The notes beneath the pieces are model-generated. The model saw nothing but the letters and a program-made list of their open reading frames with translations, made no database searches and had not been told where the DNA came from. A stretch of 64,000 nucleotides of DNA from an uncultured Macellibacteroides sp. Lineage in GTDB: Bacteria > Bacteroidota > Bacteroidia > Bacteroidales > Tannerellaceae. The DNA lies in contig NZ_OY762974.1 of NCBI RefSeq assembly GCF_963667135.1, positions 1,302,001 to 1,366,000 on the forward strand, in the 5' to 3' direction. Shown piece by piece: positions 14,840 through 42,987 of this stretch. The stretch's first letter is position 1, and each line of letters begins with the position of its first letter. The translations under genes and the position numbers were made by a program.

Positions 14840-14847
14840 TATCTTTG
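14840..14847 (+). promoter_or_regulatory. TAnnTTTG -7 box abutting the composite palindrome
   Basis: TATCTTTG matches the -7 consensus. Transcription from it would begin about 7 nt downstream, inside the first 22-bp unit of the palindromic element, and would run into the HU-like gene at 15009. The resulting leader would be about 150 nt long and mostly structured. Confidence 0.5.
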
Positions 14848-14966
14848 TATACAAATAAGTATTCATTCAACAGCTGTGTAACAATCATTCAACAGCTACT
14901 GAATGATTGTTACACAGCTGTTGAATGATAGTTTAACAACTGAAGAATGATTATTTGTTCGCTTAT
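14847..14966. repeat. Composite palindrome 1: five 22-bp units arranged C'A'-ABC
   Basis: A perfect 28-bp inverted repeat (14863-14890 and 14901-14928) with a 10-nt spacer (14891-14900) lies inside a larger 22-bp-periodic pattern. Forward-reading units to the right start with GAATGA at 14901, 14923 and 14945. Their inverted counterparts end with TCATTC at 14868 and 14890. The inner units A' (14869-14890) and A (14901-14922) are perfect complements. The outer units C' and C match in GAATGA and in TTATTTGT with a 4-nt offset. Unit B has no partner. It begins right after a promoter box. As RNA it could fold into a long interrupted hairpin; as DNA it offers repeated sites spaced two helical turns apart. 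I recognise no named repeat family. Confidence 0.85.
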
Positions 14967-15008
14967 TTGGTAATAAACAGTAGTATCCTTTTAATAAAAG
15001 AGAGTAGA

Positions 15009-15614
15009 ATGAGCGCTAAGTATAAGTTGGTAAAGAGTCCGCCGGCATCGCAAAAAGAGGGGGAAAGTAGTCTGCATGCGCGAATTGTTCCGCAAGAAAC
15101 GGTAAAGATTAATCAGTTGTGCGAGGAAATATCCACGATGAGCTCATTCAGTCCGGGGGATATCAAGGGTATGTTGGAATCGTTTTCGCTTTTGCTGGGC
15201 AGGCACCTGGACGGTGGGAGCAATGTGGAACTGGATGGTATCGGATACTTTTCGGTATCGCTTTCGTGTCCGCCAAACGTTACCAGCGAGAGCCAGATCC
15301 GGGCAAAATCAATCAAATTCAAAAATGTAAACTTCAGGTGTTCAACCATGTTGAAGAGGAGGCTGAAAACGATGAAACTGGAAAAGGCAACGCCTGTAAA
15401 GAAGGAATTGTTTACTCCGGAGCAACGTCAAAACCGTATTCTGTCTTATTTCAGGGAAAACCGTACATTAACAACCTCCTACTGTATGGCCATTAACCAG
15501 ACTAACCGTCATGTAGCACTGGCGGATTTGAAGTTACTTATTGAAGCCGGTAAGGTTGAAAGACTGGGAAAAGGTAGAAGTGTGTTGTATATTCTAGGAT
15601 CATCCGGTTTTTAG
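15009..15614 (+). CDS. HU-like DNA-binding protein with C-terminal winged helix
   Basis: The first 125 residues fit the HU/HIG-type fold of Bacteroidota: a short basic N-tail, ARIVPQETVKINQLCEEIS, FSPGDIKGMLESFSLLLGRHL, the glycine-rich DNA-facing strand GIGYFSVSL and a basic C-part (IKFKNVNFRCS, KRRLK). The last 60 residues (from FTPEQRQNRIL) form a helix-turn-helix with a wing: TTSYCMAINQTNRHVALADLK, then LIEAGKVERLGKGR. This suggests a sequence-specific regulator more than a chromosome packer. ATG at 15009 was chosen over one at 14955 because the latter would use codons lying in the palindromic element. It is monocistronic, between the efflux operon and the metG terminator. Targets are unknown; the upstream 22-bp repeats are obvious candidates. 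Confidence 0.8.
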   Translation: MSAKYKLVKSPPASQKEGESSLHARIVPQETVKINQLCEEISTMSSFSPGDIKGMLESFSLLLGRHLDGGSNVELDGIGYFSVSLSCPPNVTSESQIRAKSIKFKNVNFRCSTMLKRRLKTMKLEKATPVKKELFTPEQRQNRILSYFRENRTLTTSYCMAINQTNRHVALADLKLLIEAGKVERLGKGRSVLYILGSSGF

Positions 15615-15668
15615 TTTATTGTAAAAACCCTACGGGACAGGCTGTATTGCGCCTACCATTAAAAACAG

Positions 15669-15704
15669 CCGGGTGGTTAAACGAAAGAACGTTCAACCAC
15701 CCGG
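15669..15704 (-). terminator. Bidirectional terminator between metG and the HU-like gene
   Basis: A strong stem with arms CCGGGTGGTT (15669-15678) and AACCACCCGG (15695-15704) continues inward with one mismatch. On the minus strand it is followed by CTGTTTTTA, which fits rho-independent termination after metG. On the plus strand it is followed by TTTATAGTATA, so it may also end the HU-like transcript. Confidence 0.75.
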
Positions 15705-15740
15705 TTTATAGTATATCTTCTAAGATACTTTAGTAAATTG

Positions 15741-17780
15741 TTATTTTACTTCGCTACCGTTCTTTACTGGCTTTTCGGGCATAACCACAACCAGCTTACC
15801 ATCGTTGTTCTCGGCAGAAAGAATCATTCCTTCGGATACGATACCCTTCAATTTACGTGGAGCCAGGTTGGCAATGAAGCATACCTGCTTTCCAACCAGG
15901 TCTTCCGGTGCATAGTGTTGTGCAATACCGGAAATGATGGTTCTTCCTTCCAGTCCGTCGTCAATTTTAAACTGAAGCAGCTTGTCGGCTTTGGGAACTT
16001 TTGCACACTCCAGCACTGTTCCTACGCGAATATCCAGCTTTGTGAAGTCGTCGAATTCAACATTCTCGCGAATAGGTTTAGCCTTATAGTTGGCCTCTTC
16101 GTTGGCTCTCTTGGTATCGAGGAGTTTCTGCACCTGGGCTTCAATTACACTGTCCTCGATCTTTTCGAACAACAATTCAGATTTACCCAACTGGTGACCG
16201 GCTTCTAGCAGGTCGGTATGTCCCAAACGATCCCATCCAAAAGGCTGAACATTCAACATTTTACATAATGTTACCATGCTAAAAGGAAGGAAAGGTTCGA
16301 ACGCAATGGAAAGGTTGGCAGTAATCTGCAAGGCGATATTAAGGATAGTCTCCACACGCGCCATATCCGTCTTCGCCAGTTTCCAGGGTTCTGTATCGGC
16401 TAAGTATTTATTTCCGATGCGTGCCAGGTTCATGGCTTCCTTTTGTGCATCGCGGAAGCGATAGATATCCAGCAGGTTTTCGACCGAAGCCTTCACATCG
16501 GCAAAATCGGCCAGCGTTTGTTTGTCGTAATCCGTCAATTCTCCGCAAGCGGGCACCTTACCATCGAAATACTTTTCGGTAAGCACCAACGCGCGGTTTA
16601 CAAAGTTACCGAAGATGGCAACCAGTTCATTATTATTACGTGCCTGGAAATCCTTCCAGGTAAAGTCATTGTCTTTTGTTTCGGGAGCATTCGCAGTAAG
16701 TACATAACGAAGCACATCCTGTTTGTTTGGCAGATCAATCAAATACTCGTTCAACCATACCGCCCAGTTACGCGACGTGGAAATCTTATCGCCCTCGAGG
16801 TTAAGAAACTCGTTGGCCGGAACGTTTTCGGGTAAGTTGAAAGTACCTTCTGCCTTTAGCATAGCAGGGAACACGATGCAGTGGAATACGATATTGTCTT
16901 TACCAATAAAGTGAACCATCTTGGTTTCCGGATCTTTCCACCAGGTTTCCCAGGTTTCGGGAAGCAGTTCTTTCGTATTGGAGATGTATCCGATGGGGGC
17001 ATCGAACCAAACGTAAAGCACTTTTCCTTCGGCGCCTTCCACAGGAACGGGAATACCCCAATCCAGGTCGCGGCTAACGGCACGAGGCTGCAATCCCATA
17101 TCTAACCAGGACTTGCATTGTCCGTATACATTGGACTTCCATTCTTTATGGTCTTCCAGAATCCACTGACGAAGGAACGGTTCGTGTTTATCCAAAGGCA
17201 GGTACCAGTGTTTGGTTTCGCGCATTTCGGGAACACTTCCGCTGATAGCCGATTTCGGATTAATCAAATCCGTAGCATTGAGGGATGTCCCACAAGATTC
17301 GCACTGGTCGCCATAAGCCCGCTCGTTTCCACAATGAGGGCAAGTACCTGTTATATAACGGTCGGCAAGAAATTGCTTTGCTTCCGGGTCGTAATATTGT
17401 TCGCTTGTTTTTTCTATAAACTCTCCCTTATCGTACAATTTACGAAAGAAATCGGAAGCAACCTCCCGGTGAGTTTGGGAAGTGGTACGTGAATAAATAT
17501 CGAACGTTATCCCAAAATCTTCGAAAGACTTCTTAATGATGCTGTGGTAGCGATCTACTACTTCCTGAGGTGTGATACCTTCTGCCTTTGCTTTCAGGGC
17601 AATGGGTACACCGTGTTCGTCCGAACCACCTATCATTAATACTTCTTCGCCTTTCAACCGAAGGTAGCGGGCGTATATATCGGCAGGGACGTATACTCCG
17701 GCAAGGTGACCAATGTGCACCGGACCGTTAGCATACGGCAATGCCGTAGTAATCAGCGTTCTTTTAAAATTCTTTTCCAT
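15741..17780 (-). CDS. metG: Methionyl-tRNA synthetase
   Basis: This cytoplasmic class I synthetase charges tRNA-Met. The HIGH motif is present as HIGH (22-25) in [13 protein letters not shown] zinc knuckle reads [18 protein letters not shown] (about 145-162). The KMSKS loop appears as KISTS (about 332-336), a common variant. The anticodon-binding alpha-bundle domain follows. Residues from about 575 form a C-terminal EMAP/Trbp111-like tRNA-binding OB domain ([21 protein letters not shown]), which allows dimerisation. The length of 679 aa is normal for the long form. It is transcribed leftwards from a TAnnTTTG box at 17805-17812 and ends at the 15669-15704 terminator. Confidence 0.97.
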
Positions 17781-17804
17781 ACCGTATAATCTTCATTTGA
17801 GGTG

Positions 17805-17812
17805 CAAAGGTA
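17805..17812 (-). promoter_or_regulatory. TAnnTTTG -7 box for metG
   Basis: The minus strand reads TACCTTTG, an exact consensus match 24 bp before the metG ATG, giving a short leader of about 18 nt. Confidence 0.5.
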
Positions 17813-17887
17813 GAGAATTTTTACCAAAAAGATACAGTAACTTCCTATTTAATAGGGATTGCGGTCAAATTCATGTCGATAAAATAA

Positions 17888-19426
17888 TTACATTCCCCAT
17901 CCTTCCCTGTCCAGGTTCCTGTAATGAATAGCTTCGGCCAAATGACTTGTCTTAATGGTATCCGCTCCATCCAGATCGGCAATCGTTCGCGAAACTTTCA
18001 ATATTCGGTCGTACGCCCTGGCAGATAGACTCAGCCGGGTCATGGCCTGCTTCAAAAGCTCCAGTCCGGCTGCATCTGGAACTGCAAATTGATGAAGTTG
18101 TTTGGCTTCCATCTGGGCATTGCAATAGATTCCGTCGAAGGATTCGAAACGCTTCTCCTGAATTGCCCTTGCCTTAATTACTCTTTCACGAACTTCGGCG
18201 CTGGGTTCGGAAGGTGTCTGATCAGAGATCTTTTCGAAAGGTACAGGCACTATCTCGATCTGGATATCGATACGATCGAGAAGCGGACCGGATATCTTGT
18301 TCATATACTTCTGGACCGCACCCGGCGCACACAGACAAGCCCGGTCGGGATGGTTGTAATAGCCGCAAGGACAAGGATTCATGGAAGCCACCAGCATAAA
18401 TCCAGCCGGATAGTTTACGGTAAACCTAGCCCTGGAGATACAAATTTGTCTATCCTCAAGCGGTTGCCTCATTACTTCAAGCACATTTCGGTTGAATTCA
18501 GGGAGTTCGTCCAGAAACAAAACTCCATTATGGGAGAGGCTTATTTCGCCCGGTTGGGGGAAAGAACCGCCTCCAACCATTGCAACATTCGAAATGGAGT
18601 GATGTGGTGCACGGAACGGGCGTTGCGTCATCAGAGATGAACCACCTCCAATCTTACCGGCAACGGAATGAATCTTGGTTGTTTCAAGTGATTCTTGCAG
18701 TGTAAAGGGTGGGAGAATGGAGGGAAGTCGCTTAGCAAGCATGGACTTACCGCTTCCCGGCGGACCAACCATAAGTAGATTATGTCCTCCGGCTGCCGAC
18801 ACTTCAAGTGCACGTTTCACATTTTCTTGTCCTCTTACATCGGAAAAGTCGAACTGAAACGCTTCCTGTTTTGCATAAAACTCTTCCCGCGTGTTCACTT
18901 CCGTGGGTTCAAGCGTACGCTTTCCGTCCACAAACTCTATTACTTCTTTGATATTGTCGACTCCAAAGACTTCCAGATTATTCACCACCGCGGCTTCTCT
19001 GGCATTCTGACGGGGCAAAATAAAGCCTTTGAATCCTTCTTCACGGGCTTTGATGGCAATGGGCAGGACTCCTTTTACAGGCATAAGACTTCCGTCTAGT
19101 GAAAGTTCGCCCATCATCAGGTATTTATCAAGACGGGAACTGTCTACTTGCCCGGCTGCAGCAAGAATTGCAACGGCCAATGGCAGATCGTATGCGGATC
19201 CTTCTTTCCGGATATCGGCAGGAGCCATATTAACTACTACCCGGTTACCCGGAAATTTATAGCCGTTAACCTGCAGAGCAGAGATGATGCGTTCATGACT
19301 TTCGCGGACAGCCACATCTGGCAATCCAACGAGAAAGAAGCTAACGCCCTTCGTACAATTTACTTCGATTGTTACAATAGTAGCTGTGATGCCCTGAACG
19401 GCAGCAGCGAATGATTTGACAAGCAT
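17888..19426 (-). CDS. YifB/ComM-like Mg-chelatase-type AAA+ ATPase
   Basis: The 512-aa protein belongs to the YifB/ComM family. The N-terminal ChlI domain (residues 1-160) includes VEVNCTKGVSFFLVGLPDVAVRESHERI and VVNMAPADIRKEGSAYDLP. The central AAA+ module has Walker A GPPGSGKSMLAKRLPSILPP (about 219-238) and Walker B GVLFLDELPEF. Conserved cysteines (CPCGYYNHPDRACLC, about 351-365) probably bind zinc. The C-terminal Mg_chelatase_C region ends in SLSARAYDRILKVSRTIADL. ComM is a hexameric helicase that promotes branch migration during natural transformation; whether this homologue does so is unknown. It follows the TlpA-like gene by 37 bp and precedes metG, which has its own promoter. Confidence 0.92.
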   Translation of the reverse strand: MLVKSFAAAVQGITATIVTIEVNCTKGVSFFLVGLPDVAVRESHERIISALQVNGYKFPGNRVVVNMAPADIRKEGSAYDLPLAVAILAAAGQVDSSRLDKYLMMGELSLDGSLMPVKGVLPIAIKAREEGFKGFILPRQNAREAAVVNNLEVFGVDNIKEVIEFVDGKRTLEPTEVNTREEFYAKQEAFQFDFSDVRGQENVKRALEVSAAGGHNLLMVGPPGSGKSMLAKRLPSILPPFTLQESLETTKIHSVAGKIGGGSSLMTQRPFRAPHHSISNVAMVGGGSFPQPGEISLSHNGVLFLDELPEFNRNVLEVMRQPLEDRQICISRARFTVNYPAGFMLVASMNPCPCGYYNHPDRACLCAPGAVQKYMNKISGPLLDRIDIQIEIVPVPFEKISDQTPSEPSAEVRERVIKARAIQEKRFESFDGIYCNAQMEAKQLHQFAVPDAAGLELLKQAMTRLSLSARAYDRILKVSRTIADLDGADTIKTSHLAEAIHYRNLDREGWGM

Positions 19427-19463
19427 TAGGTTTTGGTTTTACAAATTAAATGGAGAGCGTATT

Positions 19464-20564
19464 CTATTTTTTGATTACCTGCTCCAGTAGTTTTTTTACT
19501 TCCAGTCCGTTATCTGTTTTTAAAATGATTTTTCCTTCGTTATCTATGAGGAAACAACGTGGCAGTGCCGTTACGTTGTATAGTTCCAACATCGTGGTTG
19601 CCTGTCCCGCAGAGTCGGTTACCAGATTCCACTTTATGGTATCTGCATCAACAATCTTCCTCACTTGAGTCTGATCTGTATCTAAACTTATTAACAGCAT
19701 ATCCACTTTGTCTTTCGGGAATTCCCTCTTTATATCATCAAGATACAAATTATCCGTCTGGCACATTTCGCACCAGGGGGCTGTAAAACTTAACAGCAGG
19801 TACTTGTTCGCAAACGAATCAAGGCTTACAGGCTGGTTGTAGATATTTTTAAGATCAAATCCGGGAGCTTCTGCTCCAATGGCAGTCCGCTTAGCTCTGG
19901 CTGTAAACGATTCAAGCTCTTTTACAAGAAAGAAATCCTTTAATGACGGTTCGAGCAGGGCAAGAAATTCATCAAGAAGTCTTGTATCTTCGTTATTTCT
20001 GAAAAAACGGTATATTAATACAACAGAAGCAGCTTCGGAGGGATTTTTACGAATGTAAGACTCAGCTCTTTCCTGCAGCTGATGATTCACGTTTATAAGT
20101 TTGGAAGTCGTGGTTGTCTCGTTTGTTACCAACGAGTCCGGTTCGGCATTTAGCTTTTGTTGCAACAAAGCACGTTCTTTAATAAGGGACGATTGTCCTT
20201 TGTAGAAAGCTGTTAGCTTGTCGTTTATATCACCCCCTTTAATCTCAAGAAGTTCGGGAATCTGAATGTCGCCGGAGAGGGAAATCTTTTCACCCGATTC
20301 AGGATAAAGAGTTATCCAACGCGATTTATGTTCAAAAAGCAAGGTTACGCTAGTGTAATTTGCCTGCTTCTGAATTAGGTGGAATCGTCCGCTTTTCTCA
20401 CACTTAATTGTATCAACAAGCTTTTTATCCGGACCTTCAAATACGGCATAAATAGTTTGATCTTTCAAATTGGAAAGGTTTCCTTCCAACTGAAAAACTG
20501 TTTTCTTTCCACAAGAAAGCAAACAAAACAGCGTACATAGTACGATTACACCCCTTTTTATCAT
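19464..20564 (-). CDS. TlpA/ResA-like thioredoxin-fold lipoprotein with DUF4369-like N-domain
   Basis: A lipoprotein signal ends in LLSC (Cys18), placing the 366-aa protein in the periplasm. Residues 25-125 form a beta-rich DUF4369-like domain (FQLEGNLSNLKDQTIYAVFEG). A helical linker follows. The C-terminal AhpC/TSA-Redoxin domain starts near residue 225 with IGAEAPGFDLKNIYNQPVSL and contains the redox motif APWCEMCQTDN. Such proteins in Bacteroidota are thought to reduce periplasmic disulfides and often appear in many paralogues. The CEMC spacer differs from CGPC of classical thioredoxins. It probably shares a transcript with the yifB-like gene downstream. Confidence 0.85.
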   Translation of the reverse strand: MIKRGVIVLCTLFCLLSCGKKTVFQLEGNLSNLKDQTIYAVFEGPDKKLVDTIKCEKSGRFHLIQKQANYTSVTLLFEHKSRWITLYPESGEKISLSGDIQIPELLEIKGGDINDKLTAFYKGQSSLIKERALLQQKLNAEPDSLVTNETTTTSKLINVNHQLQERAESYIRKNPSEAASVVLIYRFFRNNEDTRLLDEFLALLEPSLKDFFLVKELESFTARAKRTAIGAEAPGFDLKNIYNQPVSLDSFANKYLLLSFTAPWCEMCQTDNLYLDDIKREFPKDKVDMLLISLDTDQTQVRKIVDADTIKWNLVTDSAGQATTMLELYNVTALPRCFLIDNEGKIILKTDNGLEVKKLLEQVIKK

Positions 20565-20730
20565 TTGTTGCAGTTCAGATTCACGTAAATTCTTTGGGGA
20601 TAAAGATATAAAAAATAATTAAAAGAAACCTATTATTACATAAAATTTGACAAAAACGATCTAACACACTTGAATGCTGCAAATTATATGAAGGCAATAC
20701 AACTGAATAAGTGAGGGATAGTATGAAATA

Positions 20731-20768
20731 AAAAGAGGGAGAAATCACGATGTGATCCTCCCTCTTTT
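20731..20768 (-). terminator. Rho-independent terminator after pckA
   Basis: The arms AAAAGAGGGA and TCCCTCTTTT plus an inner ATCAC/GTGAT pairing form a stem with a 3-nt loop (GAT, 20749-20751) and one bulge. On the minus strand the stem is followed by a T-rich run (CTTTTTATTT). It lies about 42 bp beyond the pckA stop. Confidence 0.75.
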
Positions 20769-20809
20769 GTATATTAGTATATGAGCAAAGTCTATACCAT
20801 GTAATTAAA

Positions 20810-22417
20810 TTACAATTTTGGACCTGCAGCAACTAAAGCCTTACCAGCTTCGTTTCCTGTGAACTTAGCAAAGTTCTTGATAAAACGGGCAGCCAAATCC
20901 TGAGCCTTTGTATCCCATGCTGAAGCATCAGCATAAGTGTCGCGAGGATCAAGAATCTTAGAATCAACACCTGGAAGAGCGGTAGGCACTTCAAATGAGA
21001 AGTAAGGAATTGATTTTGTTGCAGCTTTGTCGATTGAGCCATCAAGGATAGCATCGATAATACCACGTGTATCTTTGATAGAAATACGCTTGCCGCTTCC
21101 GTTCCAACCTGTGTTAACCAAGTAAGCAGTTGCACCAGACATTTTCATCTTCTTAACCAATTCTTCGCCGTATTTTGTTGGGTGCAATGACAAGAATGCA
21201 GCACCGAAACAAGCAGAGAACGTAGGCGTTGGTTCAGTAATACCACGCTCTGTTCCAGCCAATTTAGCAGTAAATCCAGAAAGGAAATAATACTGTGTTT
21301 GTTCTGGAGTAAGGATAGATACCGGAGGCAATACACCAAAAGCATCTGCCGACAAGAAAATTACTTTCTTAGCAGGACCAGCTTTTGATACAGGCTTAAC
21401 GATATTATCGATATGATAAATAGGATAAGAAACACGTGTGTTTTCTGTTACAGATTTATCATCGAAATTAATTTTTCCATCAGCTGCTACAGTTACGTTT
21501 TCAAGTAAAGCGTCACGTTTGATAGCATTCCAGATATCCGGTTCATTTTCCTGGCTTAGGTTGATAACCTTAGCATAGCAACCGCCTTCGAAGTTGAATA
21601 CACCTTGATCATCCCAACCGTGTTCGTCGTCACCAATAAGCTGACGTTTTGGGTCTGTAGACAATGTTGTTTTTCCTGTTCCGGAAAGACCGAAGAAGAT
21701 AGCTGTTTCATCCTTTTCGTTTGTGTTGGCAGAGCAGTGCATAGAAGCCATACCTTGTAAAGGCAACAAGTAGTTCATATAAGAGAACATACCTTTCTTC
21801 ATTTCACCACCATACCAAGAACCACCGATCAACTGAATTTTTTCAGTAAGGTTGAATACAACGAAAGTCTTAGAATTCAAACCAAGAGATGCGTAGTCGT
21901 CGCCTGCATTACATTTTGAACCGTTCATTACAACGAAATCAGGTTCACCATAGTTTGCCAATTCTTCTTCAGAAGGACGGATAAACATGTTCTTCACGAA
22001 GTGTGCCTGCCAGGCTACTTCCATAATAAAACGAACCTTAATACGTGAACTTTCGTTAGCTCCACAGAAAGTATCTACTACAAACAAACGCTTGTTTGAA
22101 AGTTCCTTCTGTACAATAGCTTTAAGCTTACCCCATGCTTCAACAGAAAGGGGTTTGTTGTCGTTTTTGTATTCGTCGGAAGTCCACCAGATTGTATCTT
22201 TGGTAGTTTCGTCCATAACAAAAAATTTGTCTTTAGGTGAACGACCGGTATAAACACCTGTCATTACATTAATAGCTCCCATTTCTGTTTGCTGACCTAC
22301 TTCAAAACCTTCCAGACCTGGCTTTGTTTCTTCTGCGAACAATTGTTCGTAAGACGGGTTATGCAGGACTTCAGTTGCTCCTGTAATGCCGTACTTGCTT
22401 AAATCTAAATTAGCCAT
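20810..22417 (-). CDS. pckA: Phosphoenolpyruvate carboxykinase (ATP)
   Basis: This 535-aa enzyme interconverts oxaloacetate plus ATP with PEP plus CO2 and ADP; in Bacteroidales it commonly runs towards oxaloacetate in succinate and propionate formation. Family motifs are GRSPKDKF (58-65), the kinase-1a P-loop [16 protein letters not shown] (about 240-255), the metal-binding [10 protein letters not shown], and the [13 protein letters not shown] adenine-binding segment. Length and motifs are those of the ATP-dependent class. The promoter region is unusual: a perfect 13-bp inverted repeat (22486-22519) covers the -7 box about 90 bp before the ATG, which suggests control by a dimeric regulator. 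A hairpin terminator follows. Confidence 0.97.
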
Positions 22418-22485
22418 TTTAAATAATTAGTTAAATTGATTGACTTATATAACTTTTCTAATACTCAATATATCACAAGAAAACA

Positions 22486-22519: not shown

Positions 22520-22566
22520 CATTTTTCAAAAGGAAAAACACAATTAAGGAAATTTTTCAGTAATTA

Positions 22567-27446: not shown

Positions 27447-28076
27447 ATGGCCAAAAACAAGTATTACGTAGTCTGGAAAGGTCTCAACCCAGGTGTTTAC
27501 GACAACTGGGCTGCATGCAAAATGCAGGTAGAAGGACAAGAAGGTGCTAAATACAAGTCGTTCGAAACACGTGAGGAGGCATCCGAAGCCTTTGGAAAAG
27601 ATTTTAAGGAGTTTATCAAACCCGCATCGTCTTCGCGGATTGCTTCGGCCACCACAGTTAGCGGGGGGAAACCAATCATGAACAGCATTGCCGTTGATGC
27701 CGCCTGCAGCGGGAATCCGGGAATGATGGAATACAGGGGTGTTTATACAGCCACTAAACAAGAGTTATTTCATGTAGGGCCTTTTGAACAAGGGACCAAC
27801 AACATTGGCGAATTCCTGGCTTTGGTTCACGGACTAGCTTTCCTGAAACAGCAAAACAGCGTTCTTCCACTTTACTCGGATAGCCGAAACGCCATTGGAT
27901 GGGTACAAAAAAAGAAATGTAAAACGCTTTTGGAAAGAGAACCCCGCAACGAGGCTATTTTCGACTTAATAGAACGAGCCGAGAAGTGGCTGAACGAAAA
28001 CAACTATACCACTCCTATCCTTAAATGGGAAACGTCCGAATGGGGAGAGATCCCTGCAGACTTCGGTAGAAAATAA
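27447..28076 (+). CDS. rnhA: Ribonuclease HI with viroplasmin-like N-terminal domain
   Basis: The first 55 residues are the caulimovirus viroplasmin/RNase H1 N-domain (KYYVVWKGLNPGVYDNWAAC, SFETREEASEAFG), which binds RNA-DNA hybrids. The catalytic RNase H fold begins at residue 80 with AVDAACSGNPG (Asp84), NNIGEFLALVHGL (Glu122) and YSDSRNAI (Asp145). The enzyme removes RNA from hybrids, for example R-loops and Okazaki primers. At 209 aa it is complete. A decayed duplicate of its 3' half lies about 2.6 kb downstream (30470-30693), beyond the galactofuranose genes, so this locus has been rearranged. Sequence identity includes the 3' flank up to the ATGAATGTTAA stretch. Confidence 0.94.
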   Translation: MAKNKYYVVWKGLNPGVYDNWAACKMQVEGQEGAKYKSFETREEASEAFGKDFKEFIKPASSSRIASATTVSGGKPIMNSIAVDAACSGNPGMMEYRGVYTATKQELFHVGPFEQGTNNIGEFLALVHGLAFLKQQNSVLPLYSDSRNAIGWVQKKKCKTLLEREPRNEAIFDLIERAEKWLNENNYTTPILKWETSEWGEIPADFGRK

Positions 28077-34861: not shown

Positions 34862-34890
34862 CTAAAACTTTCTATTCAGTCAACGCTATC

Positions 34891-34922: not shown

Positions 34923-34956
34923 CCTGCTCTATATGAGTGTACATAAATTCAAGCTT

Positions 34957-36619: not shown

Positions 36620-36772
36620 TATTTCTATGTTTTAATGCACAAGAAAAGAAAAAATGTGCAGTTTTCCACATTTTTAGTAGATAATATTTGTTTTGTAACA
36701 TAAAAAATTCTTTTCTTTGCACTGCAAATTTAAAAAGTAAATTCGTATTAATTAATCTAAATTGAAAAAGTT

Positions 36773-37009: not shown

Positions 37010-37027
37010 TCCTTTTACGTTGAAAGT

Positions 37028-38284
37028 ATGGAATTAAAAAGAGTTGTAGTAACAGGTCTTGGAGCTATAACACCGCTTGGCAAGACCCTCACAGAAACAT
37101 GGGAGGGTCTTGTTAACGGTAAGAGTGGCGCCAGACCTATTACTCATTTTGATGCATCGAAGTTCAAAACACAGTTCGCCTGTGAAGTAAAGGACTTCGA
37201 GCCGACCCAGTATTTCGACCGTAAAGAAGCTCGCAAACTCGATCGTTATGCCCAATTTGCACTAGTTGCTGCAGATGAAGCGGTAGCCGATTCAGGATTG
37301 GACGTTGAAAAACTTGATCTTGATCGTATAGGCGTAATTTTTTCATCCGGAATCGGAGGTATAAGTACCTTCCAGGAAGAAGTAGAAAATTACGACGAAG
37401 AACGCGGACCTCGTTTCAATCCATTTTTCATTCCAAAGATGATTGCAGATATTGCTGCAGGTCATATTTCAATGAAATACGGATTCAGGGGACCGAACTT
37501 CTCTGTAGTTTCGGCTTGCGCATCTTCAACAAATGCAATTGCCGACGCATGTAATTACATTCGTTTGGGAAAAGCAAATGCGATTGTAACCGGAGGAGCT
37601 GAAGCTGCTATAACAAGTGCAGGTGTTGGTGGGTTCAACGCTATAAACGCACTATCAACCAGAAACGATTCTCCCGAAACAGCTTCGCGCCCCTTTAGCG
37701 CAAGCCGCGACGGATTCGTAATGGGAGAAGGTGCTGCATGCCTTATACTGGAAGAAATGGAACACGCCCTTGCAAGAGGTGCGAAAATCTATTGCGAAGT
37801 GGCAGGAACAGGATTGTCTGCCGATGCTTACCACATTACAGCCACTCACCCTGAGGGGTTAGGAGCCAAGTTGGTTATGCGTAACGCTTTGGAAGATGCT
37901 GAAATGAAACCGGAAGAAATCGATTATATCAATGTGCACGGAACATCCACTCCTGTTGGAGACCTCTCTGAAGTAAAAGCTATTAAAGAGGTATTTGGAG
38001 ATCATGCATATAAGCTGAATATTAGTTCTACCAAATCGATGACTGGCCACCTGCTGGGTGCAACCGGCGCGTTGGAAGCTGCTGCTTGTATTTTAGCGAT
38101 GAAAAATGGAATTGTACCTCCGACAATTAATTTTACCGAAGGTGATGAAGATCCGGAAATTGATTACACATTGAATTTTACATTCAATAAAGCACAGAAA
38201 AGAGAAATCAATGCTGCCTTATCCAATACCTTTGGTTTTGGAGGTCATAATGCCAGCATGATCGTTAAAAAATTTGTGAAATAA
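37028..38284 (+). CDS. fabF: Beta-ketoacyl-ACP synthase II
   Basis: The 418-aa condensing enzyme extends acyl-ACP with malonyl-ACP in type II fatty-acid synthesis. The catalytic triad is visible: Cys164 in VVSACASSTNA, His in NVHGTSTPVGD (about residue 304) and His in GHLLGATGALE (about 340). The glycine-rich FGFGGHNAS near the C-terminus is also conserved. The length is standard. Its stop is separated by one base from the GTG start of rnc, so the genes are translationally close. The only strong hairpin after fabF lies inside the rnc coding region. Confidence 0.97.
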   Translation: MELKRVVVTGLGAITPLGKTLTETWEGLVNGKSGARPITHFDASKFKTQFACEVKDFEPTQYFDRKEARKLDRYAQFALVAADEAVADSGLDVEKLDLDRIGVIFSSGIGGISTFQEEVENYDEERGPRFNPFFIPKMIADIAAGHISMKYGFRGPNFSVVSACASSTNAIADACNYIRLGKANAIVTGGAEAAITSAGVGGFNAINALSTRNDSPETASRPFSASRDGFVMGEGAACLILEEMEHALARGAKIYCEVAGTGLSADAYHITATHPEGLGAKLVMRNALEDAEMKPEEIDYINVHGTSTPVGDLSEVKAIKEVFGDHAYKLNISSTKSMTGHLLGATGALEAAACILAMKNGIVPPTINFTEGDEDPEIDYTLNFTFNKAQKREINAALSNTFGFGGHNASMIVKKFVK

Positions 38285-38285
38285 A

Positions 38286-39128
38286 GTGTTTATACAATTA
38301 TACAAAAAAATAAGGCTCCTCCTGTTGAAAAACAAGGAGCCTTATTCTTCTTTACACAAGATACTAGGCTTTTACCCTGATAAGATAGAACTTTACCAAC
38401 AGGCATTTATCCATAAATCGGCCATAGCAGAAGGTATCATAGAGCAGTCCTGGAGAAACAACGAACGGTTGGAATTTCTCGGGGACGCTATTCTTAGTAC
38501 CGTAGTGGCTGATATTCTATATGTAAAATTCCGCAACAAGCGCGAAGGCTTTCTTACCAATACCCGTTCCAAAATTGTTCAACGCGAAACGTTGAACCGT
38601 GTTGCACTCGATCTTGGCCTCGACAAGCACATTGTTTGCGCCAAAAAGATGCACACCCACGGAAACGACCTTTACGGAAACACGCTCGAAGCATTAATCG
38701 GAGCCATCTACCTGGACAAAGGTTACGAAGCTTGTCACAAGTTCGTTTCGAAGGTATTGATTGGCAAATACATCAATGTAGACAATCTGGCACGTAAGGA
38801 GGTTAATTTTAAATCGGCCCTTATTGAATGGAGTCAGAAAACAAAATTCGAAATCTCTTTCGAGCTCATCGAATCTTTTATGGACGAAGAAAGCAACCCT
38901 GTTTTTCAGTATGCAGTCATGCTTTCTGACATTCAGCTGGGCGTAGGCATCGGATTCTCCAAAAAAGAAGCACAACAAAATGCTTCCAAAATGGCTATCA
39001 AGAAGATACGAAAAGATCCCGCCACACAAGAAATTATAGCCGGACTTAAAAAAGCAAATGATTCGGAAGCTGTTAATGACGAACAGCAGGAAGAAAAACA
39101 ACTGGAGATTCTTCCCGCCGAAGAATAA
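38286..39128 (+). CDS. rnc: Ribonuclease III
   Basis: The 280-aa endonuclease cuts double-stranded RNA in rRNA and mRNA processing. The RNase III signature NNERLEFLGDAILS lies at about 58-71, with the second acidic cluster GNTLEALIGAIYLDKG (about 130-145). A double-stranded RNA-binding domain follows (about 175-250, FKSALIEWSQK, GIGFSKKEAQQNASKMAIKKI). The tail is acidic. The start is a GTG one base after the fabF stop; homologues keep the N-terminal region with KEPYSSLHKILGFYP, so this start is preferred. A perfect 10-bp hairpin followed by a T-rich run lies in codons 9-20 and may affect expression. Confidence 0.93.
   Translation: MFIQLYKKIRLLLLKNKEPYSSLHKILGFYPDKIELYQQAFIHKSAIAEGIIEQSWRNNERLEFLGDAILSTVVADILYVKFRNKREGFLTNTRSKIVQRETLNRVALDLGLDKHIVCAKKMHTHGNDLYGNTLEALIGAIYLDKGYEACHKFVSKVLIGKYINVDNLARKEVNFKSALIEWSQKTKFEISFELIESFMDEESNPVFQYAVMLSDIQLGVGIGFSKKEAQQNASKMAIKKIRKDPATQEIIAGLKKANDSEAVNDEQQEEKQLEILPAEE
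38311..38344 (+). promoter_or_regulatory. Terminator-like hairpin inside the 5' end of rnc
   Basis: Arms 38311-38320 (TAAGGCTCCT) and 38335-38344 are perfect complements with a 14-nt loop, followed by TTCTTCTTT. It lies 26 bases after the fabF stop but within the rnc frame. It may terminate part of the acpP-fabF transcripts, or serve as an RNase III cleavage site. Confidence 0.55.
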
Positions 39129-39146
39129 ACACCACGCAACAAAACA

Positions 39147-39166
39147 AGGGATGCAATCGCATCCCT
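39147..39166 (-). terminator. Hairpin at the pfkA stop codon
   Basis: AGGGATGC (39147-39154) and GCATCCCT (39159-39166) pair with a 4-nt loop; the pfkA stop codon overlaps the stem. On the minus strand it is followed by TGTTTTGTTG. It probably ends pfkA transcripts and may also stop rnc read-through. Confidence 0.6.
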
Positions 39167-40190
39167 AACTTCCGAAGTTAATTCCCATCCGAAGTCCCTG
39201 AACAATAAGCTCGTGCTCTTTTGTTACCACTTTTAGTTTCCCTGCCACCTCGCCCAGCGGCGTCGAAGTTACCGTGTTGCCACACATGCAAACCATCCGT
39301 CCGAACTGACCTTGCGAAATAAGCTCCGTAGCATGTCCACCCAGACGGGTAGCAAGATTGCGATCATACGGAGATGGATTTCCGCCACGCTGAATATAAC
39401 CAAGCACCGTTTCACGGGTTTCAATACCTGTAGTCTCTTCAATCGCTTTGGTAATATAATCGGCAGGCCTGGTTTTACCTGGAGAAGCAACACCCTCAGC
39501 CACCACAACAATAGAATAAGGCTTACCCCGGTGTGCCCGGTCCAGTATGGCTTCGTTCACTTTTTCCATATTATAGCCAAGCTCGGGCAACAAAATTACA
39601 TCCGCGCCACCGGCCATCCCGGCATACAAAGCAATCCACCCGGCATGGTGACCCATTACCTCAACCACCATCACCCGTTTATGAGAACTAGCGGTGCTAT
39701 GCAGGCGGTCAATCGCTTCGGTGGCAATATTCACCGCCGTATCAAAACCAAACGTAATATCCGTCCCCCACACATCGTTATCAATTGTTTTGGGAACACC
39801 AATAATATTCAATCCAAGCTGCGAAAGCATATTGGCAGTTTTTTGGGTTCCGTTACCCCCAATGCACACCAAACAATCCAGTCCCAGGGCTTCATAGTTC
39901 TCTTTAATAACATGAGGCTTTTCCGTATCACCCGAAGCAAGCAACTTCCGAAAAGGCTTCTCGCGAGAAGTACCAAGGATAGTCCCGCCCAGATTGAGGA
40001 TGCCCGAAAGACTCCGCTCCGTAAAAACCTCGACATCCTTATTCAGCAATCCAACAAAACCGCTGTGTATCCCGATCACCTCCATACCGTAGTGCATAAT
40101 GGCTGTTTTACCTACACCCCGAATGGTTGCATTGATGCCGGGGCAGTCGCCACCGGACGAAAGAATCCCTATTTTCATTGTTTTACTCAT
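39165..40190 (-). CDS. pfkA: 6-phosphofructokinase (ATP/PPi specificity uncertain)
   Basis: The 341-aa enzyme phosphorylates fructose 6-phosphate. It has the GGDCPGINATIRG motif (13-25), the phosphoryl-donor loop CIGGNGTQKTANML (109-122) and the catalytic VPKTIDND (132-139). In ATP enzymes the donor loop is usually GGDGS and the catalytic segment is GTIDND; PPi enzymes have GGDD and KTIDND. Here Gly114 is ATP-like, Lys134 is PPi-like and the usual Asp is Asn113, so the donor is uncertain. Sugar-binding VMGHHAGWIALYAG and RMVCM follow. Met5 (40178) is an alternative start because the -7 box at 40203-40210 leaves only about 7 nt before Met1. Confidence 0.9.
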   Translation of the reverse strand: MSKTMKIGILSSGGDCPGINATIRGVGKTAIMHYGMEVIGIHSGFVGLLNKDVEVFTERSLSGILNLGGTILGTSREKPFRKLLASGDTEKPHVIKENYEALGLDCLVCIGGNGTQKTANMLSQLGLNIIGVPKTIDNDVWGTDITFGFDTAVNIATEAIDRLHSTASSHKRVMVVEVMGHHAGWIALYAGMAGGADVILLPELGYNMEKVNEAILDRAHRGKPYSIVVVAEGVASPGKTRPADYITKAIEETTGIETRETVLGYIQRGGNPSPYDRNLATRLGGHATELISQGQFGRMVCMCGNTVTSTPLGEVAGKLKVVTKEHELIVQGLRMGINFGS

Positions 40191-40202
40191 TTATGTACGT
40201 AA

Positions 40203-40210
40203 CAAAGATA
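40203..40210 (-). promoter_or_regulatory. TAnnTTTG -7 box for pfkA
   Basis: The minus strand reads TATCTTTG, 12 bp before the first pfkA ATG. It lies in the 34-bp gap shared with the divergent GH3-family gene. Confidence 0.45.
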
Positions 40211-40224
40211 TAAATAAAAAGAGA

Positions 40225-41787
40225 ATGGTTAAATTTGCCGGGAACACAATTAAAAAAGTCATGGATTTTTTAACAAAAGCGGTTTTACCTTTCTTTCGTT
40301 ACAGATTAAAACAGATCGAATCGCATGTTATGCATGCCGATGCCGTACAGCAAAAACAGCTGTCCCGGCTTATCGACGTATCTAAACAAACGGAATGGGG
40401 GAAGAAATACGATTATAAAAGTATCCGAAATTACGAAATATTTCAGGAACGTATTCCTATACAACAATACGACGATGTAAAACCCTATGTGGAACGGATG
40501 CTGCAGGGAGAACAAGGCCTAATATGGCCCACCCCTGTAAAATGGTTCGCCAAGTCGAGCGGAACCACCAACGACAAGAGCAAATACCTGCCTGTATCCA
40601 AAGAAATACTTTGGCGGTGCCACTACAAGGGAGGCTTCGATGCCGTTGCGTTATACCTGGGCAACAACCCGTCGAGCAATTTTTTCGGGCGGAAGGGACT
40701 CATACTCGGCGGCAGTCACAAGCCGGTAGCCCTGAACCAGCACGCCCATTGCGGAGACCTTTCGGCCGTGCTGCTGCAACAGCTCAACCCCCTTGTCAAC
40801 CTTGTGAGAGTTCCCCCCAAACGTATCATTCTGATGGACGAATGGGAAAGTAAAATAAAAGCCATTGTAGAAAACACCTGGAACAAAGACCTGAACAGCA
40901 TTTCGGGCGTACCTTCCTGGATGCTGGTATTAATAAAAGCACTTCTGGAACGTACCGGAAAAGAATCGCTCACCGAAGTCTGGCCCAATCTGGAAGTCTT
41001 TTTCCACGGAGGTATCAGTTTCAGCCCCTACCGCGCACAATACAAAGCCCTTATTCCCTCGGATAAGATGCACTATGTGGAAACCTACAACGCTTCCGAA
41101 GGATTTTTCGGCATACAAAGCGACCTGAACGATCCCTCCATGCTGCTTACCCTGGATTACGGAATCTTTTATGAGTTTATACCCATGAGCGAGATAGAGA
41201 GAGAACAACCCTCCGTTCTTCCCCTCGAAGCCGTGGCAACCGGCGTTAATTATGCCATGGTAATAACAACCTGCGGAGGATTGTGGCGTTACCTTATCGG
41301 AGACACCATCCGTTTTACCTCCACCAACCCCTATAAATTTATTATCACCGGACGTACAAAGCACTTTATCAATGCCTTTGGCGAAGAACTCATGGTAGAT
41401 AACGCCGACAAGGGTATGGCACGTGCCTGCGAACTAACCGGCGCCAAAGTAAAAGAATACACGGCAGCACCCCTGTTTATGTTAAACGCGGCACAAGGAA
41501 AACACCAATGGTTTATTGAATTTGAGAAAATGCCTTCCTCCTTGTCCGAATTCGCGCGCATATTAGACAGCACCTTGCAACAACTCAATTCCGATTACGA
41601 AGCCAAACGCTACCGAAGCATGTCCTTACTACCGCCAGAAATAATTCCGGCCCGCGAAGGCGTCTTTTATGAATGGCTCAAGGAAAAAGGCAAACTGGGC
41701 GGGCAACATAAAATCCCGAGGCTAAGCAACCAACGCACACACATCGAACAGCTACTTCTGTTAAATCAGAACCTGAGCGACAAGTAA
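40225..41787 (+). CDS. GH3 auxin-responsive promoter family protein (acyl-adenylate type)
   Basis: The roughly 520-aa protein belongs to the GH3 family of the adenylate-forming superfamily, named after plant amido synthetases but widespread in Bacteroidota. ATP-binding blocks are FAKSSGTTNDKSKYLPVS (about 112-129), VETYNASEGFFGIQ (about 287-300) and the YLIGDTIRFTSTNPYKFIITGRTKHFINAFGEEL region (about 355-388). The C-terminal domain with ITGRTK matches the rotating domain. Members join carboxylates to amino acids in plants; the bacterial substrate is unknown. ATG 40225 is preferred, ATG 40261 is possible. Longer upstream reading frame overlaps pfkA and is rejected. Its end overlaps the PAP2 gene by 22 bp. 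Confidence 0.85.
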   Translation: MVKFAGNTIKKVMDFLTKAVLPFFRYRLKQIESHVMHADAVQQKQLSRLIDVSKQTEWGKKYDYKSIRNYEIFQERIPIQQYDDVKPYVERMLQGEQGLIWPTPVKWFAKSSGTTNDKSKYLPVSKEILWRCHYKGGFDAVALYLGNNPSSNFFGRKGLILGGSHKPVALNQHAHCGDLSAVLLQQLNPLVNLVRVPPKRIILMDEWESKIKAIVENTWNKDLNSISGVPSWMLVLIKALLERTGKESLTEVWPNLEVFFHGGISFSPYRAQYKALIPSDKMHYVETYNASEGFFGIQSDLNDPSMLLTLDYGIFYEFIPMSEIEREQPSVLPLEAVATGVNYAMVITTCGGLWRYLIGDTIRFTSTNPYKFIITGRTKHFINAFGEELMVDNADKGMARACELTGAKVKEYTAAPLFMLNAAQGKHQWFIEFEKMPSSLSEFARILDSTLQQLNSDYEAKRYRSMSLLPPEIIPAREGVFYEWLKEKGKLGGQHKIPRLSNQRTHIEQLLLLNQNLSDK

Positions 41788-42542
41788 ACACCTCCCCCCT
41801 GGGGAGTGAAAGTGGGAGCAAGAATAAGATTATCAGCCATCTTGCTCTTCGTCTTTTTTACAAGCAGATTACGAATCGGGAAATAGACAAGATAAGACAA
41901 CTCCACAGAAAGGATGCCAAAGCCGGCCCCCGCAGCCACATCGGCCACCCAATGACGGTTGTTATAGACCCGCGAAGCCGCCACAAAACCCGCCAGGGCA
42001 TATCCGGAGTAAGCAAGCACAGGCGAGCTGTCTTTAAATTCCTTATAAGCCATATGGGCACCCAGAAAAGCATTGGCCGTATGTCCCGAAGGAAACGAAT
42101 ACGGACTGCCATCCGGCCGCACAACCTTCAGATTATTCTTTAATCCGTGTACCGCGGCAGCATTAATCCCCTCGGCAATAGAAAGCAGGAAAAACTGATC
42201 CACCACACTGTGTTTCTCCTTCCCCATCAGGTCGCAAACAAAAACCCAGCCCAGCATACCCCATTCCATATAATCGTCGATCCGCACCTGCGACACAGAA
42301 TCCTTGCGGCTAAGCAAATGAAAATCGTTCATCCCATGTACAGCCGTACCGAAAGCCCCCACCGCAATAAGCGAAGCAGGCAAAACAAGCTGTCCGGGCG
42401 AAAAGTGTTGCACCCCTACAGTAAGATCGTTCTTCAGAGAATCAGCAAGAATAGTTTCCTGAGCCCGCGACTGAAAGCCGCAGCCAAATAAAAAAACAAT
42501 CCCCGCCAGCCATGCCAACACCCCCGGTTTACATCCACCCAT
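41766..42542 (-). CDS. PAP2-family phosphatase, exported
   Basis: The 258-aa protein has an N-terminal signal (VLAWLAGIVFLFGCGFQSRAQ), then a PAP2 core with the three phosphatase motifs: LKNNLKVVRPDGSPYSF (KxxxxxxRP, about 137-153), PSGHTANAF (about 154-162) and SRVYNNRHWVADVAAG (about 191-206) with the catalytic His. It should act in the periplasm or membrane on lipid phosphates such as undecaprenyl pyrophosphate or phosphatidyl-glycerophosphate. A cysteine in the signal (FGC) may alternatively be a lipidation site. It converges on the GH3-family gene and is the last conserved gene before the accessory patch. Confidence 0.85.
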   Translation of the reverse strand: MGGCKPGVLAWLAGIVFLFGCGFQSRAQETILADSLKNDLTVGVQHFSPGQLVLPASLIAVGAFGTAVHGMNDFHLLSRKDSVSQVRIDDYMEWGMLGWVFVCDLMGKEKHSVVDQFFLLSIAEGINAAAVHGLKNNLKVVRPDGSPYSFPSGHTANAFLGAHMAYKEFKDSSPVLAYSGYALAGFVAASRVYNNRHWVADVAAGAGFGILSVELSYLVYFPIRNLLVKKTKSKMADNLILAPTFTPQGGGVYLSLRF

Positions 42543-42875
42543 ACAAACTCCAATTTCTAACTATGTTATTCATTCACGTAATGAAGGTACAAAGAAACAA
42601 AAAAGAAAAGTAACTTTATTCCAAATACCACAGCGTAAACCCGTTCCAACACGAATAAAACGCAAAATCATCTTACATCTCACACTTTTGGGGGATAACA
42701 CCCTGTTTACCAATAAGTAAAAAGGTGACAGATGCCTAAAACCCATCTGTCACCTTCTTTCATCTGTCACCACCGGCAAGCTACATCGGCAACACCGCTA
42801 TATTACCAACTCACTATCTTTCCCCAACACTAAAGGAAAGTAATTCAAACACTATATACAAGTACAATTTTGCAT
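42543..42875. other. Intergenic region with a short hairpin array
   Basis: There is no credible coding region here. The notable contents are the inverted repeat at 42722-42771 and, at the right end, a near-consensus -7 box CAATTTTG (42865-42872) just before composite palindrome 2. A CACTTTTG at 42683-42690 is also one base off the -7 consensus. Confidence 0.6.
42722..42771. repeat. Short palindromic repeat with CATCTGTCACC units
   Basis: A perfect 13-bp inverted repeat (AAGGTGACAGATG at 42722-42734 and its complement at 42744-42756) has a 9-nt loop. The word CATCTGTCACC recurs at 42761-42771, 17 bp after the first forward copy. The layout A'-A-B resembles the larger element downstream at smaller scale. 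TTCTTT after the stem also permits a weak terminator. Confidence 0.6.
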
Positions 42876-42987
42876 CCGAACAACTAATTATCGGACCATG
42901 GTCAACTTATCATCGGACCAGGGTCCGATGATAAGTTGACCATGGTCCGATGAAAGATACACCCAGGTCCGATGATTAGTTGTTCGT
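42876..42987. repeat. Composite palindrome 2: five 22-bp units arranged C'A'-ABC
   Basis: Units run 42876-42897 (C'), 42898-42919 (A'), a 2-nt spacer, then 42922-42943 (A), 42944-42965 (B) and 42966-42987 (C). Each right-hand unit starts with GGTCCGATGA. A' and A are perfect complements; the perfect inverted repeat is 30 bp long (42890-42919 and 42922-42951). C' and C pair in 20 of 22 positions. B is unpaired beyond its first ten bases. The element starts 4 bp after a near-consensus -7 box and ends at the IS target-site duplication. It repeats the layout of 14847-14966 with unrelated sequence. Confidence 0.88.

What the first reader, a model, noticed from the sequence alone, without database searches (positions are those of the whole stretch)
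14847..42987. Two unrelated sequences share one architecture: five 22-bp units as C'A'-ABC directly after a promoter box
Seen directly: 14847-14966 and 42876-42987 have no common sequence, yet both consist of 22-bp units in the order C', A' (inverted), short spacer (10 or 2 nt), A, B, C. In both, A'/A is a perfect 22-bp pair inside a longer perfect inverted repeat (28 and 30 bp), C'/C pair imperfectly, and B is unpaired. Both begin 0-4 bp after a TAnnTTTG or near-TAnnTTTG box. Conservation of layout without conservation of sequence suggests selection on structure, or a process that regenerates the layout. Inference: a class of RNA leaders or protein-binding arrays in which each copy has its own specificity.
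Basis: partly seen in the sequence, partly recalled or inferred. Interest (0 to 1): 0.8.

Follow-up and report, generated by a model that had tools for sequence, protein, structure and literature searches.

The report
Private binding-site arrays of HU-type proteins
In the Bacteroidales bacteria examined, most long genes of one family of DNA-packaging-like proteins begin with a row of about four mirror-symmetric DNA sites spaced two helix turns apart; the layout is kept while the letters differ from gene to gene, which looks like each protein having its own private landing strip, with further copies scattered over the chromosome.

Summary
The two sites are the only places in the 64 kb window with the layout (scores 176 and 172; next 109; maximum of 20 shuffles 118). 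Site 1 lies between a TATCTTTG box and a gene for an HU-HIG protein (HU domain plus predicted winged helix). Site 2 is a solitary copy whose leader was split by an ISAs1-family insertion. A sequence-independent scan found such arrays upstream of 75 of 95 long HU-HIG genes (z > 6) and 12 of 75 short ones, with very different sequences. Array sequence follows the winged-helix part of the adjacent protein more closely than its HU part. Mismatches show no G-U excess, so DNA palindromes fit better than RNA stems. Best reading: cooperative DNA operator arrays private to each HU-HIG protein, at the start of its own transcript (autoregulation inferred), with solitary copies perhaps bound in trans (inferred). 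Ten paper searches found no description. Binding and regulation are untested.

The parts
14840..14847 (+). -7-type box TATCTTTG of site 1, ends 22 bp before core 1
   Evidence: same offset in 31 of 77 arrays and 18 further occurrences at 20, 21 or 23
14851..14962 (+). site 1 array (112 bp, outer tips included), operator-like array of the HU-HIG gene
14870..14877 (.). site 1 core 1 ACAGCTGT
14892..14899 (.). site 1 core 2 ACAGCTAC
14914..14921 (.). site 1 core 3 ACAGCTGT
14936..14943 (.). site 1 core 4 ACAACTGA
14963..15008 (+). leader between array and start codon
15009..15614 (+). HU-HIG gene, 201 aa: HU domain plus C-terminal winged helix (predicted recognition helix residues 167-179)
   Evidence: PF18291 E 9.2e-37; TIGR01201; AlphaFold2 model mean pLDDT 87.1, pTM 0.52; Foldseek
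15669..15704 (.). terminator-like stem-loop (found on the - strand) between the HU-HIG gene and the convergent methionyl-tRNA synthetase gene
42865..42872 (+). CAATTTTG at the box position of site 2 (one mismatch to TAnnTTTG)
42876..42987 (+). site 2 array (112 bp), solitary copy closest to the operator of the HU-HIG gene at G000:1929506
42895..42902 (.). site 2 core 1 ACCATGGT
42917..42924 (.). site 2 core 2 ACCAGGGT
42939..42946 (.). site 2 core 3 ACCATGGT
42961..42968 (.). site 2 core 4 ACCCAGGT
42984..42992 (.). left copy of the 9-bp target duplication TCGTAATGC of the insertion sequence
   Evidence: letters, read by eye
42993..44623 (+). ISAs1-family insertion sequence (ends CAGGGCAGACGC / GCGTCTGCCCTG) in the leader of site 2; transposase 43450-44610
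   Evidence: NF033564 E 4.5e-109
44624..44632 (.). right copy of the target duplication; a leader resembling that of other arrays continues beyond it
   Evidence: letters, read by eye

Best explanation
The element is a DNA binding-site array for a dimeric HU-HIG protein: usually four palindromic sites, 22 bp (two helix turns) apart on one face of the DNA, within an array that is mirror-symmetric overall. It lies at or just after the presumed transcription start of the gene for that same protein. Shown: the layout, its position relative to the box and the gene, its presence at most long HU-HIG genes examined, and co-variation of its sequence with the protein's winged helix. Inferred: a dimer of the HU-HIG protein reads each palindrome with its two winged helices, neighbouring dimers bind cooperatively because of the 22-bp phasing, the HU domains bend or bridge the DNA, and the complex blocks or tunes transcription from the promoter just upstream (autoregulation). 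Solitary arrays, such as site 2, are derived copies of the unit, some of which kept both ends and lost the coding region; they are probably bound in trans by the HU-HIG protein of the same specificity.
For: Arrays upstream of long HU-HIG genes: 33 of 35, 33 of 48, 9 of 12 in further records. Best period 22 in 33 of 35 long and 6 of 29 short genes. Downstream control 0 of 22 long genes measured. Box TAnnTTT[GA] exactly 22 bp before core 1 in 31 of 77 arrays, 18 further occurrences at 20, 21 or 23, no other offset more than 3 times. Palindromy of single sites, centre pair included (0.53 against 0.28 expected), over 268 sites in 67 arrays. Array distance follows winged-helix distance (55 non-redundant pairs: r 0.25, p 0.001; partial on HU 0.225, p 0.001), not HU distance given winged helix (0.033, p 0.33). 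Best-associated residue is 168, at the start of the predicted recognition helix (column p 0.001; model). Solitary arrays are closer to an own-genome operator than to any of 51 operators of genomes other than the sister species: 28 of 28 and 15 of 15.
Against: No binding, expression or start-site data. 20 of 95 long genes have no array by the cut-off; of the 17 misses of the first two sets, six show weak 22-bp arrays and three have period 21 or 23 after a wider post-hoc search, eight remain without support; of the three misses two have best period 21. Residue 168 gives p 0.06 after correction over columns, and 12 of the 17 columns with p below 0.01 lie outside the winged helix, the second-best (119) among them. 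HU distance alone also correlates weakly with array distance (0.117, p 0.04); shared descent may add to all these correlations. Resemblance of solitary arrays to own-genome operators is expected from descent too, the profile that found them was built from these genomes, and in 4 of 28 and 2 of 15 cases an operator of the sister species is closer still. Short HU-HIG loci have arrays upstream in 3 of 29 and 9 of 46 cases and downstream in 8 of 45.
Confidence: 0.72

Rival explanations
1. The array works as an RNA leader: the transcribed palindromes form stem-loops that control stability or translation of the HU-HIG mRNA.
For: Position between box and start codon; both window arrays fold far better than shuffles (z -10.5 and -12.2); median z -7.3 over 67 arrays, 37 of 67 fold as one hairpin and 36 of these are centred on the middle of the array. 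The mirror symmetry of the whole array, which also favours such a hairpin, is real (complementary in 0.64 against 0.39 expected).
Against: Mismatches in single palindromes do not favour G-U over A-C: 223 against 186 with 289 and 258 expected (offsets 3-11; offsets 1 and 2 left out: 22 against 27 and 18 against 9); 254 against 212 with 349 and 314 expected for the whole-array mirror. Palindromy includes the two innermost bases, which a hairpin loop does not need. 30 of 67 fold with 2 to 4 hairpin loops, and the turning point differs between copies. A single central hairpin is what mirrored repeats give in any case. Sequence tracks a DNA-binding domain.
Confidence: 0.08
2. The arrays are primarily chromosome-organising or partition-like sites (centromere or bridging sites) and only secondarily operators; the HU-HIG proteins tie dispersed arrays together. 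Compatible in part with the best explanation.
For: About 40 arrays spread over the chromosome; most lack a gene but resemble the operator of a gene in the same genome; an arm variant is uniform in the arrays of one type within each species, also at one orthologous solitary array; the model resembles HU and, in its winged helix, the pNOB8 centromere-binding protein AspA and TubR, with low TM-scores by query length (0.27-0.30).
Against: No partition partner was looked for and spacing along the chromosome was not tested. The position at the promoter is the most constant feature.
Confidence: 0.15
3. Solitary arrays, site 2 included, are non-functional debris or miniature mobile derivatives of an HU-HIG unit; the layout is shared only through descent.
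For: Five of the 16 gene-less units compared match the intact unit on the far side of the missing coding region (3023, 829, 3783, 961 and, more weakly, 1832); two keep recognisable first codons (L128, L134; weak tblastn hits and by eye).
Against: Does not explain arrays with unrelated sequence at intact genes. The arm change is uniform within each species (27 to 0 and 46 to 0). No ends, target duplications or empty site of the unit could be shown.
Confidence: 0.12
4. The arrays are products or targets of the ISAs1-family insertion sequence.
For: 5 of its 7 copies in the genome lie within 35 bp of an array and a sixth in an array-type leader.
Against: 25 of the 31 profile-detected arrays of this genome are not next to it; it carries a target duplication and lies outside the array, so it is a visitor. 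Its targeting is a separate finding.
Confidence: 0.03

Closest known systems
Iteron arrays of plasmids (R6K, pPS10) bound by winged-helix Rep proteins
   Same: Repeats of 22 bp in some plasmids, winged-helix reader, cooperative binding lost when two iterons are moved apart by half a helical turn (passages of PMC4980987); autorepression by the R6K protein was seen there only as a reference title.
   Different: Iterons are repeated sites in plasmid replication origins; here units are palindromic, the array is mirror-symmetric and chromosomal, and the presumed reader is an HU-HIG protein, not Rep.
Centromere-binding winged-helix proteins (AspA of pNOB8, TubR)
   Same: Structural similarity of the winged helix (Foldseek).
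   Different: An HU domain stands in front; no partition partner examined; many arrays of several specificities in one genome.
BrickBuilt miniature element of Porphyromonas gingivalis (PMC4596501; abstract, section 5 and part 1 of 2 of section 7 read)
   Same: Bacteroidales, intergenic, short repeated units, 19 copies in one strain, promoter elements reported in its abstract.
   Different: 23-nt direct repeats, 1 to 22.8 per element, IS5-type ends; no dyad and no HU-HIG link in the parts read (one element lies next to a PF00216 DNA-binding gene in its Table 1).
HU PG0121 and the 77-bp inverted repeat of the P. gingivalis capsule locus; E. coli hupA promoter repeat (PMC3969353; abstract and passages read)
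   Same: An HU-type protein and a large inverted repeat near a promoter; the authors cite negative autoregulation of hupA and hupB.
   Different: The authors report similar affinity for all probes apart from a modest preference for loops and bulges; no 22-bp periodic palindromes in the passages read.
HU-HIG expansion in Bacteroidetes (Burroughs and others, Cell Cycle 2017; recalled, not held)
   Same: The protein family and, as recalled, a proposed role against mobile elements.
   Different: I recall no operator arrays there; not checked.

Membership tests
HU-HIG protein family (PF18291) | match over curated cut-off | tested here: met
   site 1 gene 126.3 bits against cut-off 26.2; 29 of 29 members of alignment A2 match at E 0.01 or better
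HU-HIG protein family, winged-helix class | C-terminal winged helix after the HU domain | tested here: met
   by prediction: helices 137-150, 156-163, 167-179 and strands 183-186, 193-196; Foldseek matches to AspA, TubR, MarR
BrickBuilt element | 23-nt direct tandem repeat | tested here: not met
   period 22, mirror-symmetric; best window score at period 23 is 111 and not at the two sites
BrickBuilt element | IS5-type ends GAGACCTTTGCA | tested here: not met
   with one mismatch only at 27474 and 61665 in the window, not at the arrays
Plasmid iterons | located in a plasmid replication origin and read by a Rep protein | tested here: not met
   dispersed on a 4.46 Mb contig that carries dnaA; neighbour gene is HU-HIG
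Plasmid iterons | cooperative phased binding of a winged-helix protein | not testable with these tools
   phasing and predicted winged helix present; binding not tested
RNA leader or riboswitch class | known family or compensatory pairing of RNA type | tested here: not met
   no Rfam match at gathering score in the window; no G-U excess
Miniature transposable element | terminal inverted repeats and target duplications of the whole unit, empty sites | tested here: inconclusive
   internal-deletion forms exist but no target duplication or empty site could be shown
REP/REPIN with RAYT transposase | linked RAYT gene | not tested
   no search for RAYT was made

The most novel reading that the evidence does not exclude
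Bacteroidales run a family of privately addressed nucleoid proteins: each HU-HIG paralogue has its own array code, written once at its own promoter and again in solitary arrays over the chromosome, so that each protein assembles a separate set of phased, HU-bent complexes that link or insulate chosen loci. Codes diverge between species together with the recognition helix and are rewritten at all copies, giving many parallel, non-cross-talking chromosome-organising or silencing networks in one cell.
Probability: 0.25. Interest if true: 0.92.

Novelty: new variant of a known kind. Interest (0 to 1): 0.76.

Why it matters
The arrays give most long members examined a predicted DNA target, a predicted start of transcription and a predicted set of trans sites, so the question of what these proteins do becomes directly testable by gel shift, ChIP-seq and start-site mapping. 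It is also a natural data set of dozens of protein and site pairs for learning winged-helix specificity, and a clear case of geometry conserved while sequence is not.

Tried and rejected
Considered and dropped: terminus-clustered sites (the first nine copies lay at 1.19-2.53 Mb; the longer list runs from 6 kb to 4.14 Mb). Simple tandem minisatellite or BrickBuilt (period and ends differ). Known RNA family and tRNA: none in the window. RNA stem selection: tested and not supported. Proof of mobility: the flank of one solitary copy (829) was sought in the sister species; only about 70 bp at its array-side end matched, and no clear target duplication was seen by eye in the flanks of 12 units, so mobility stays unproven. 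The only genome-contig scan gave 9 loci. A class-wide search found HU-HIG at E 1e-12 in 4 of 60 genomes and an order-wide one at E 1e-18 in 5 of 31, the own genome included in both. Relatives of the site 1 protein also lie on 6 phage-collection and 15 plasmid-collection records.

Rows dropped or flawed: L280 (98 bp upstream) was dropped; among its 46 short rows two had no readable frame (L227, L231) and one no z (L248). Arrays scoring under 130 were left out. L144, whose gene is cut by the fetched stretch, counted as long but not in 69 and 71. L172 was asked for twice and counted once. One search used 12 of the 16 listed hits. One solitary array (g1_21) had only a weak three-site score. Profile searches were capped: 25 candidates scored per genome with strict filters, 150 of 829, so copy numbers are lower bounds. 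Literature: ten searches; three papers opened in part (89; 117).
Full report
Observation. The two sites are as described, with small corrections: perfect arms of 29 and 30 nt, 8 and 2 nt apart. In a better register each is four 8-bp cores, mostly palindromic, at exact 22-bp steps, framed by arms: every 14-bp spacer has one GC-richer and one AT-rich arm, both outer arms point outward, and tips ACGAAC...GTTCGT (or a relative) close a 112-bp, roughly mirror-symmetric element. The turning point differs between copies (core 1 in L014, core 2 in L030, core 3 in L013, core 4 in L026; one copy, L006, has two). A position-by-position scan that ignores sequence and scores mutual similarity of eight arms at 22-bp steps gives 176 and 172 at the two sites and at most 109 elsewhere in 64 kb; 20 shuffles peak at 118.

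Copies in the genome. Blast and a sequence profile built from 17 copies show dispersed families: 31 places at E 0.02 or better in this genome and, with nine found by gene, weaker match or structure, about 40. Matches at E 0.01 occur in 53 of 147 relatives. dnaA lies at 19.6 kb; the copies run from 6 kb to 4.4 Mb.

The partner gene. Site 1 is followed by a 201-aa gene at 15009-15614 whose protein is HU-HIG. The profile search lists 20 HU-HIG matches in the genome. Of the 31 profile-detected arrays five have an HU-HIG gene directly downstream and a sixth has one behind an inserted element (2719920); the other 25 have none at the listed places. In the intact unit the order is box, array, about 50 bp of leader, gene, stem-loop tail. 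Of 22 units compared 16 lack the gene; five of these still match the intact unit beyond the missing coding region (3023, 829, 3783, 961 and, more weakly, 1832).

Test by structure, independent of sequence. For HU-HIG genes of five genomes I took up to 400 bp upstream and scored the best four-site array against dinucleotide shuffles. Long genes (190 aa or more, plus one cut by its stretch): 33 of 35 with z above 7; short genes: 3 of 29 above 6. The best period from 15 to 33 is 22 for 33 of 35 long genes and scattered for short ones (6 of 29 at 22). A second set (48 long, 46 short, further genomes): 33 of 48 and 9 of 46 with z above 6; downstream control 0 of 22 long genes measured, but 8 of 45 short. 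A third set of 12 long genes from named records, 8 of them labelled Bacteroides or Phocaeicola: 9 of 12; two of the three misses have best period 21. In all 75 of 95 long and 12 of 75 short. At least ten of these genes were already known or suspected to carry arrays (L066, L062, L131, L125, L130, L144, L152, L162, L314, L315). Of the 17 misses in the first two sets, a wider post-hoc search (more periods, three to five sites, eight shuffles) gives weak 22-bp arrays for six (L213, L216, L250, L264, L296, L318), period 21 or 23 for three (L179, L320, L312), and no support for eight. 62 of 67 arrays have four cores by the rule used, five have five.

Anchoring. The box TAnnTTT[GA] ends exactly 22 bp before core 1 in 31 of 77 arrays, with 18 further occurrences at 20, 21 or 23 bp; no other offset is seen more than three times. 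The box itself is at chance frequency in the window, so position, not presence, is the evidence. That it is the Bacteroides -7 element is recalled knowledge.

DNA or RNA. If RNA stems were selected, G-U mismatches should outnumber A-C ones; in DNA palindromes they should not. Over 268 sites of 67 arrays G-T and A-C mismatches are 223 and 186 (expected from composition 289 and 258; offsets 3-11 summed; offsets 1 and 2 give 22 and 27, 18 and 9), and for the mirror of the whole array 254 and 212 (349 and 314). The two innermost bases are complementary in 53% of sites (28% expected), which a hairpin loop does not need. For the RNA view: the arrays can fold (z -10.5 and -12.2 for the two sites; median -7.3 over 67), and 37 of 67 form one hairpin, 36 of them centred on the array; mirrored repeats would give this in any case. 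I read the pattern as DNA dyads.

Specificity. Half-site profiles were compared with protein distances. For 55 non-redundant pairs array distance correlates with winged-helix distance (0.25, p 0.001), also with HU distance held constant (0.225, p 0.001); HU distance alone gives 0.117 (p 0.04) and, with the winged helix held constant, 0.033 (p 0.33). The most associated residue is 168 (column p 0.001; 0.06 when corrected for all columns). Of 199 columns tested 17 have p below 0.01; five lie in the winged helix (159, 163, 166, 168, 172) and 12 elsewhere, so the per-residue signal is not confined to it. In the AlphaFold2 model (mean pLDDT 87.1, pTM 0.52, ten sequences) residue 168 is the second of helix 167-179, the recognition helix of the winged helix. 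Foldseek finds a Bacteroides putative DNA-binding protein (4fmr), HU and IHF proteins, and, for the winged helix, AspA of pNOB8, DIP2311, TubR and MarR. A weak class-wide half-site consensus exists (G at position 3 in 76%, T at 4 in 69%, A at 8 in 70%).

Trans copies. Each of 28 solitary arrays here and 15 in the sister species is closer to an operator of its own genome (10 and 6 compared) than to any of 51 operators of other genomes, the sister species left out; in 4 and 2 cases an operator of the sister species is closer still. Descent explains part of this. In one family the arm reads CCGA in all 27 counted places here and CCAA in all 46 in the sister species (6 and 10 arrays), and a solitary array with the two variants stands at an orthologous place (73.8% identity over 2996 bp). 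At three other places (G001 440, 344, 368 against G000 1737, 1832, 1428) the same neighbouring gene has an array of another type in the two species (one flank only). So sequence can be rewritten while place and layout stay.

Site 2. It is a solitary copy closest to the operator of the gene at 1929506, with a one-mismatch box, and its leader is split by an ISAs1-family element with a 9-bp duplication TCGTAATGC. Seven near-identical copies of this element exist in the genome; five lie within 35 bp of an array, a sixth (by eye) between an array-type promoter end and an HU-HIG-type leader without an array, the seventh in another sequence with a 10-bp duplication. In the sister species a relative 87-89% identical sits beside three arrays. 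The element seems to prefer array leaders.

Organism.

Mechanism, with its steps marked. Shown: layout, place, linkage, period, DNA-type symmetry, co-variation with the winged helix. Inferred: binding by the neighbouring protein; cooperative phased assembly; autoregulation through a complex at the transcription start; binding of solitary copies in trans. Not known: signal, sign of regulation, purpose of the dispersed copies.

Novelty. The ten paper searches listed under Tried and rejected found no description of such arrays; the library lacks most subscription journals, and the paper on HU-HIG expansion that I recall was not held.

Noticed in passing
window 42993-44623; G000 copies at 4645, 625693, 1344993, 2240258, 2528441, 2720081, 4279753: ISAs1-family element with apparent target preference for array leaders: 5 of 7 copies within 35 bp of an array and a sixth in an array-type leader; a relative beside three arrays in the sister species.
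   Followed up: partly
L282, L245, L214, L244 (downstream of 126-128 aa HU-HIG genes of other genomes): 22-bp periodic palindromic arrays (AAAAGGCGGGCAGCTTTT-like in some) 11 to 132 bp after the stop codon of short HU-HIG genes; best period 22 in these four.
   Followed up: partly
L064 (G000:1428743) and L140 (G000:2241896): Mosaic arrays that combine cores and arms of two specificities in one element.
   Followed up: no
L338 (G001:C2:525628) and L125 (G000:2836837): 734 bp of one flank are shared (84%), with an HU-HIG unit here and an array of another type in the sister species.
   Followed up: no
G000 units at 829569, 3023440, 294634 and others: A tail with GTGACAGATGAGAGAT / ATCTGTCACC-like stem-loops recurs after many units; a similar stem lies near 42723-42770 of the window.
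   Followed up: no
L203 (JAQUZN010000125.1): A contig labelled Candidatus Izemoplasmatales encodes an HU-HIG protein 56% identical to the window's, probably a misplaced contig.
   Followed up: no
L356, L354, L357: In Bacteroides records HU-HIG genes lie next to VapE-domain, DUF3874 or BT4734/BF3469-type genes.
   Followed up: no
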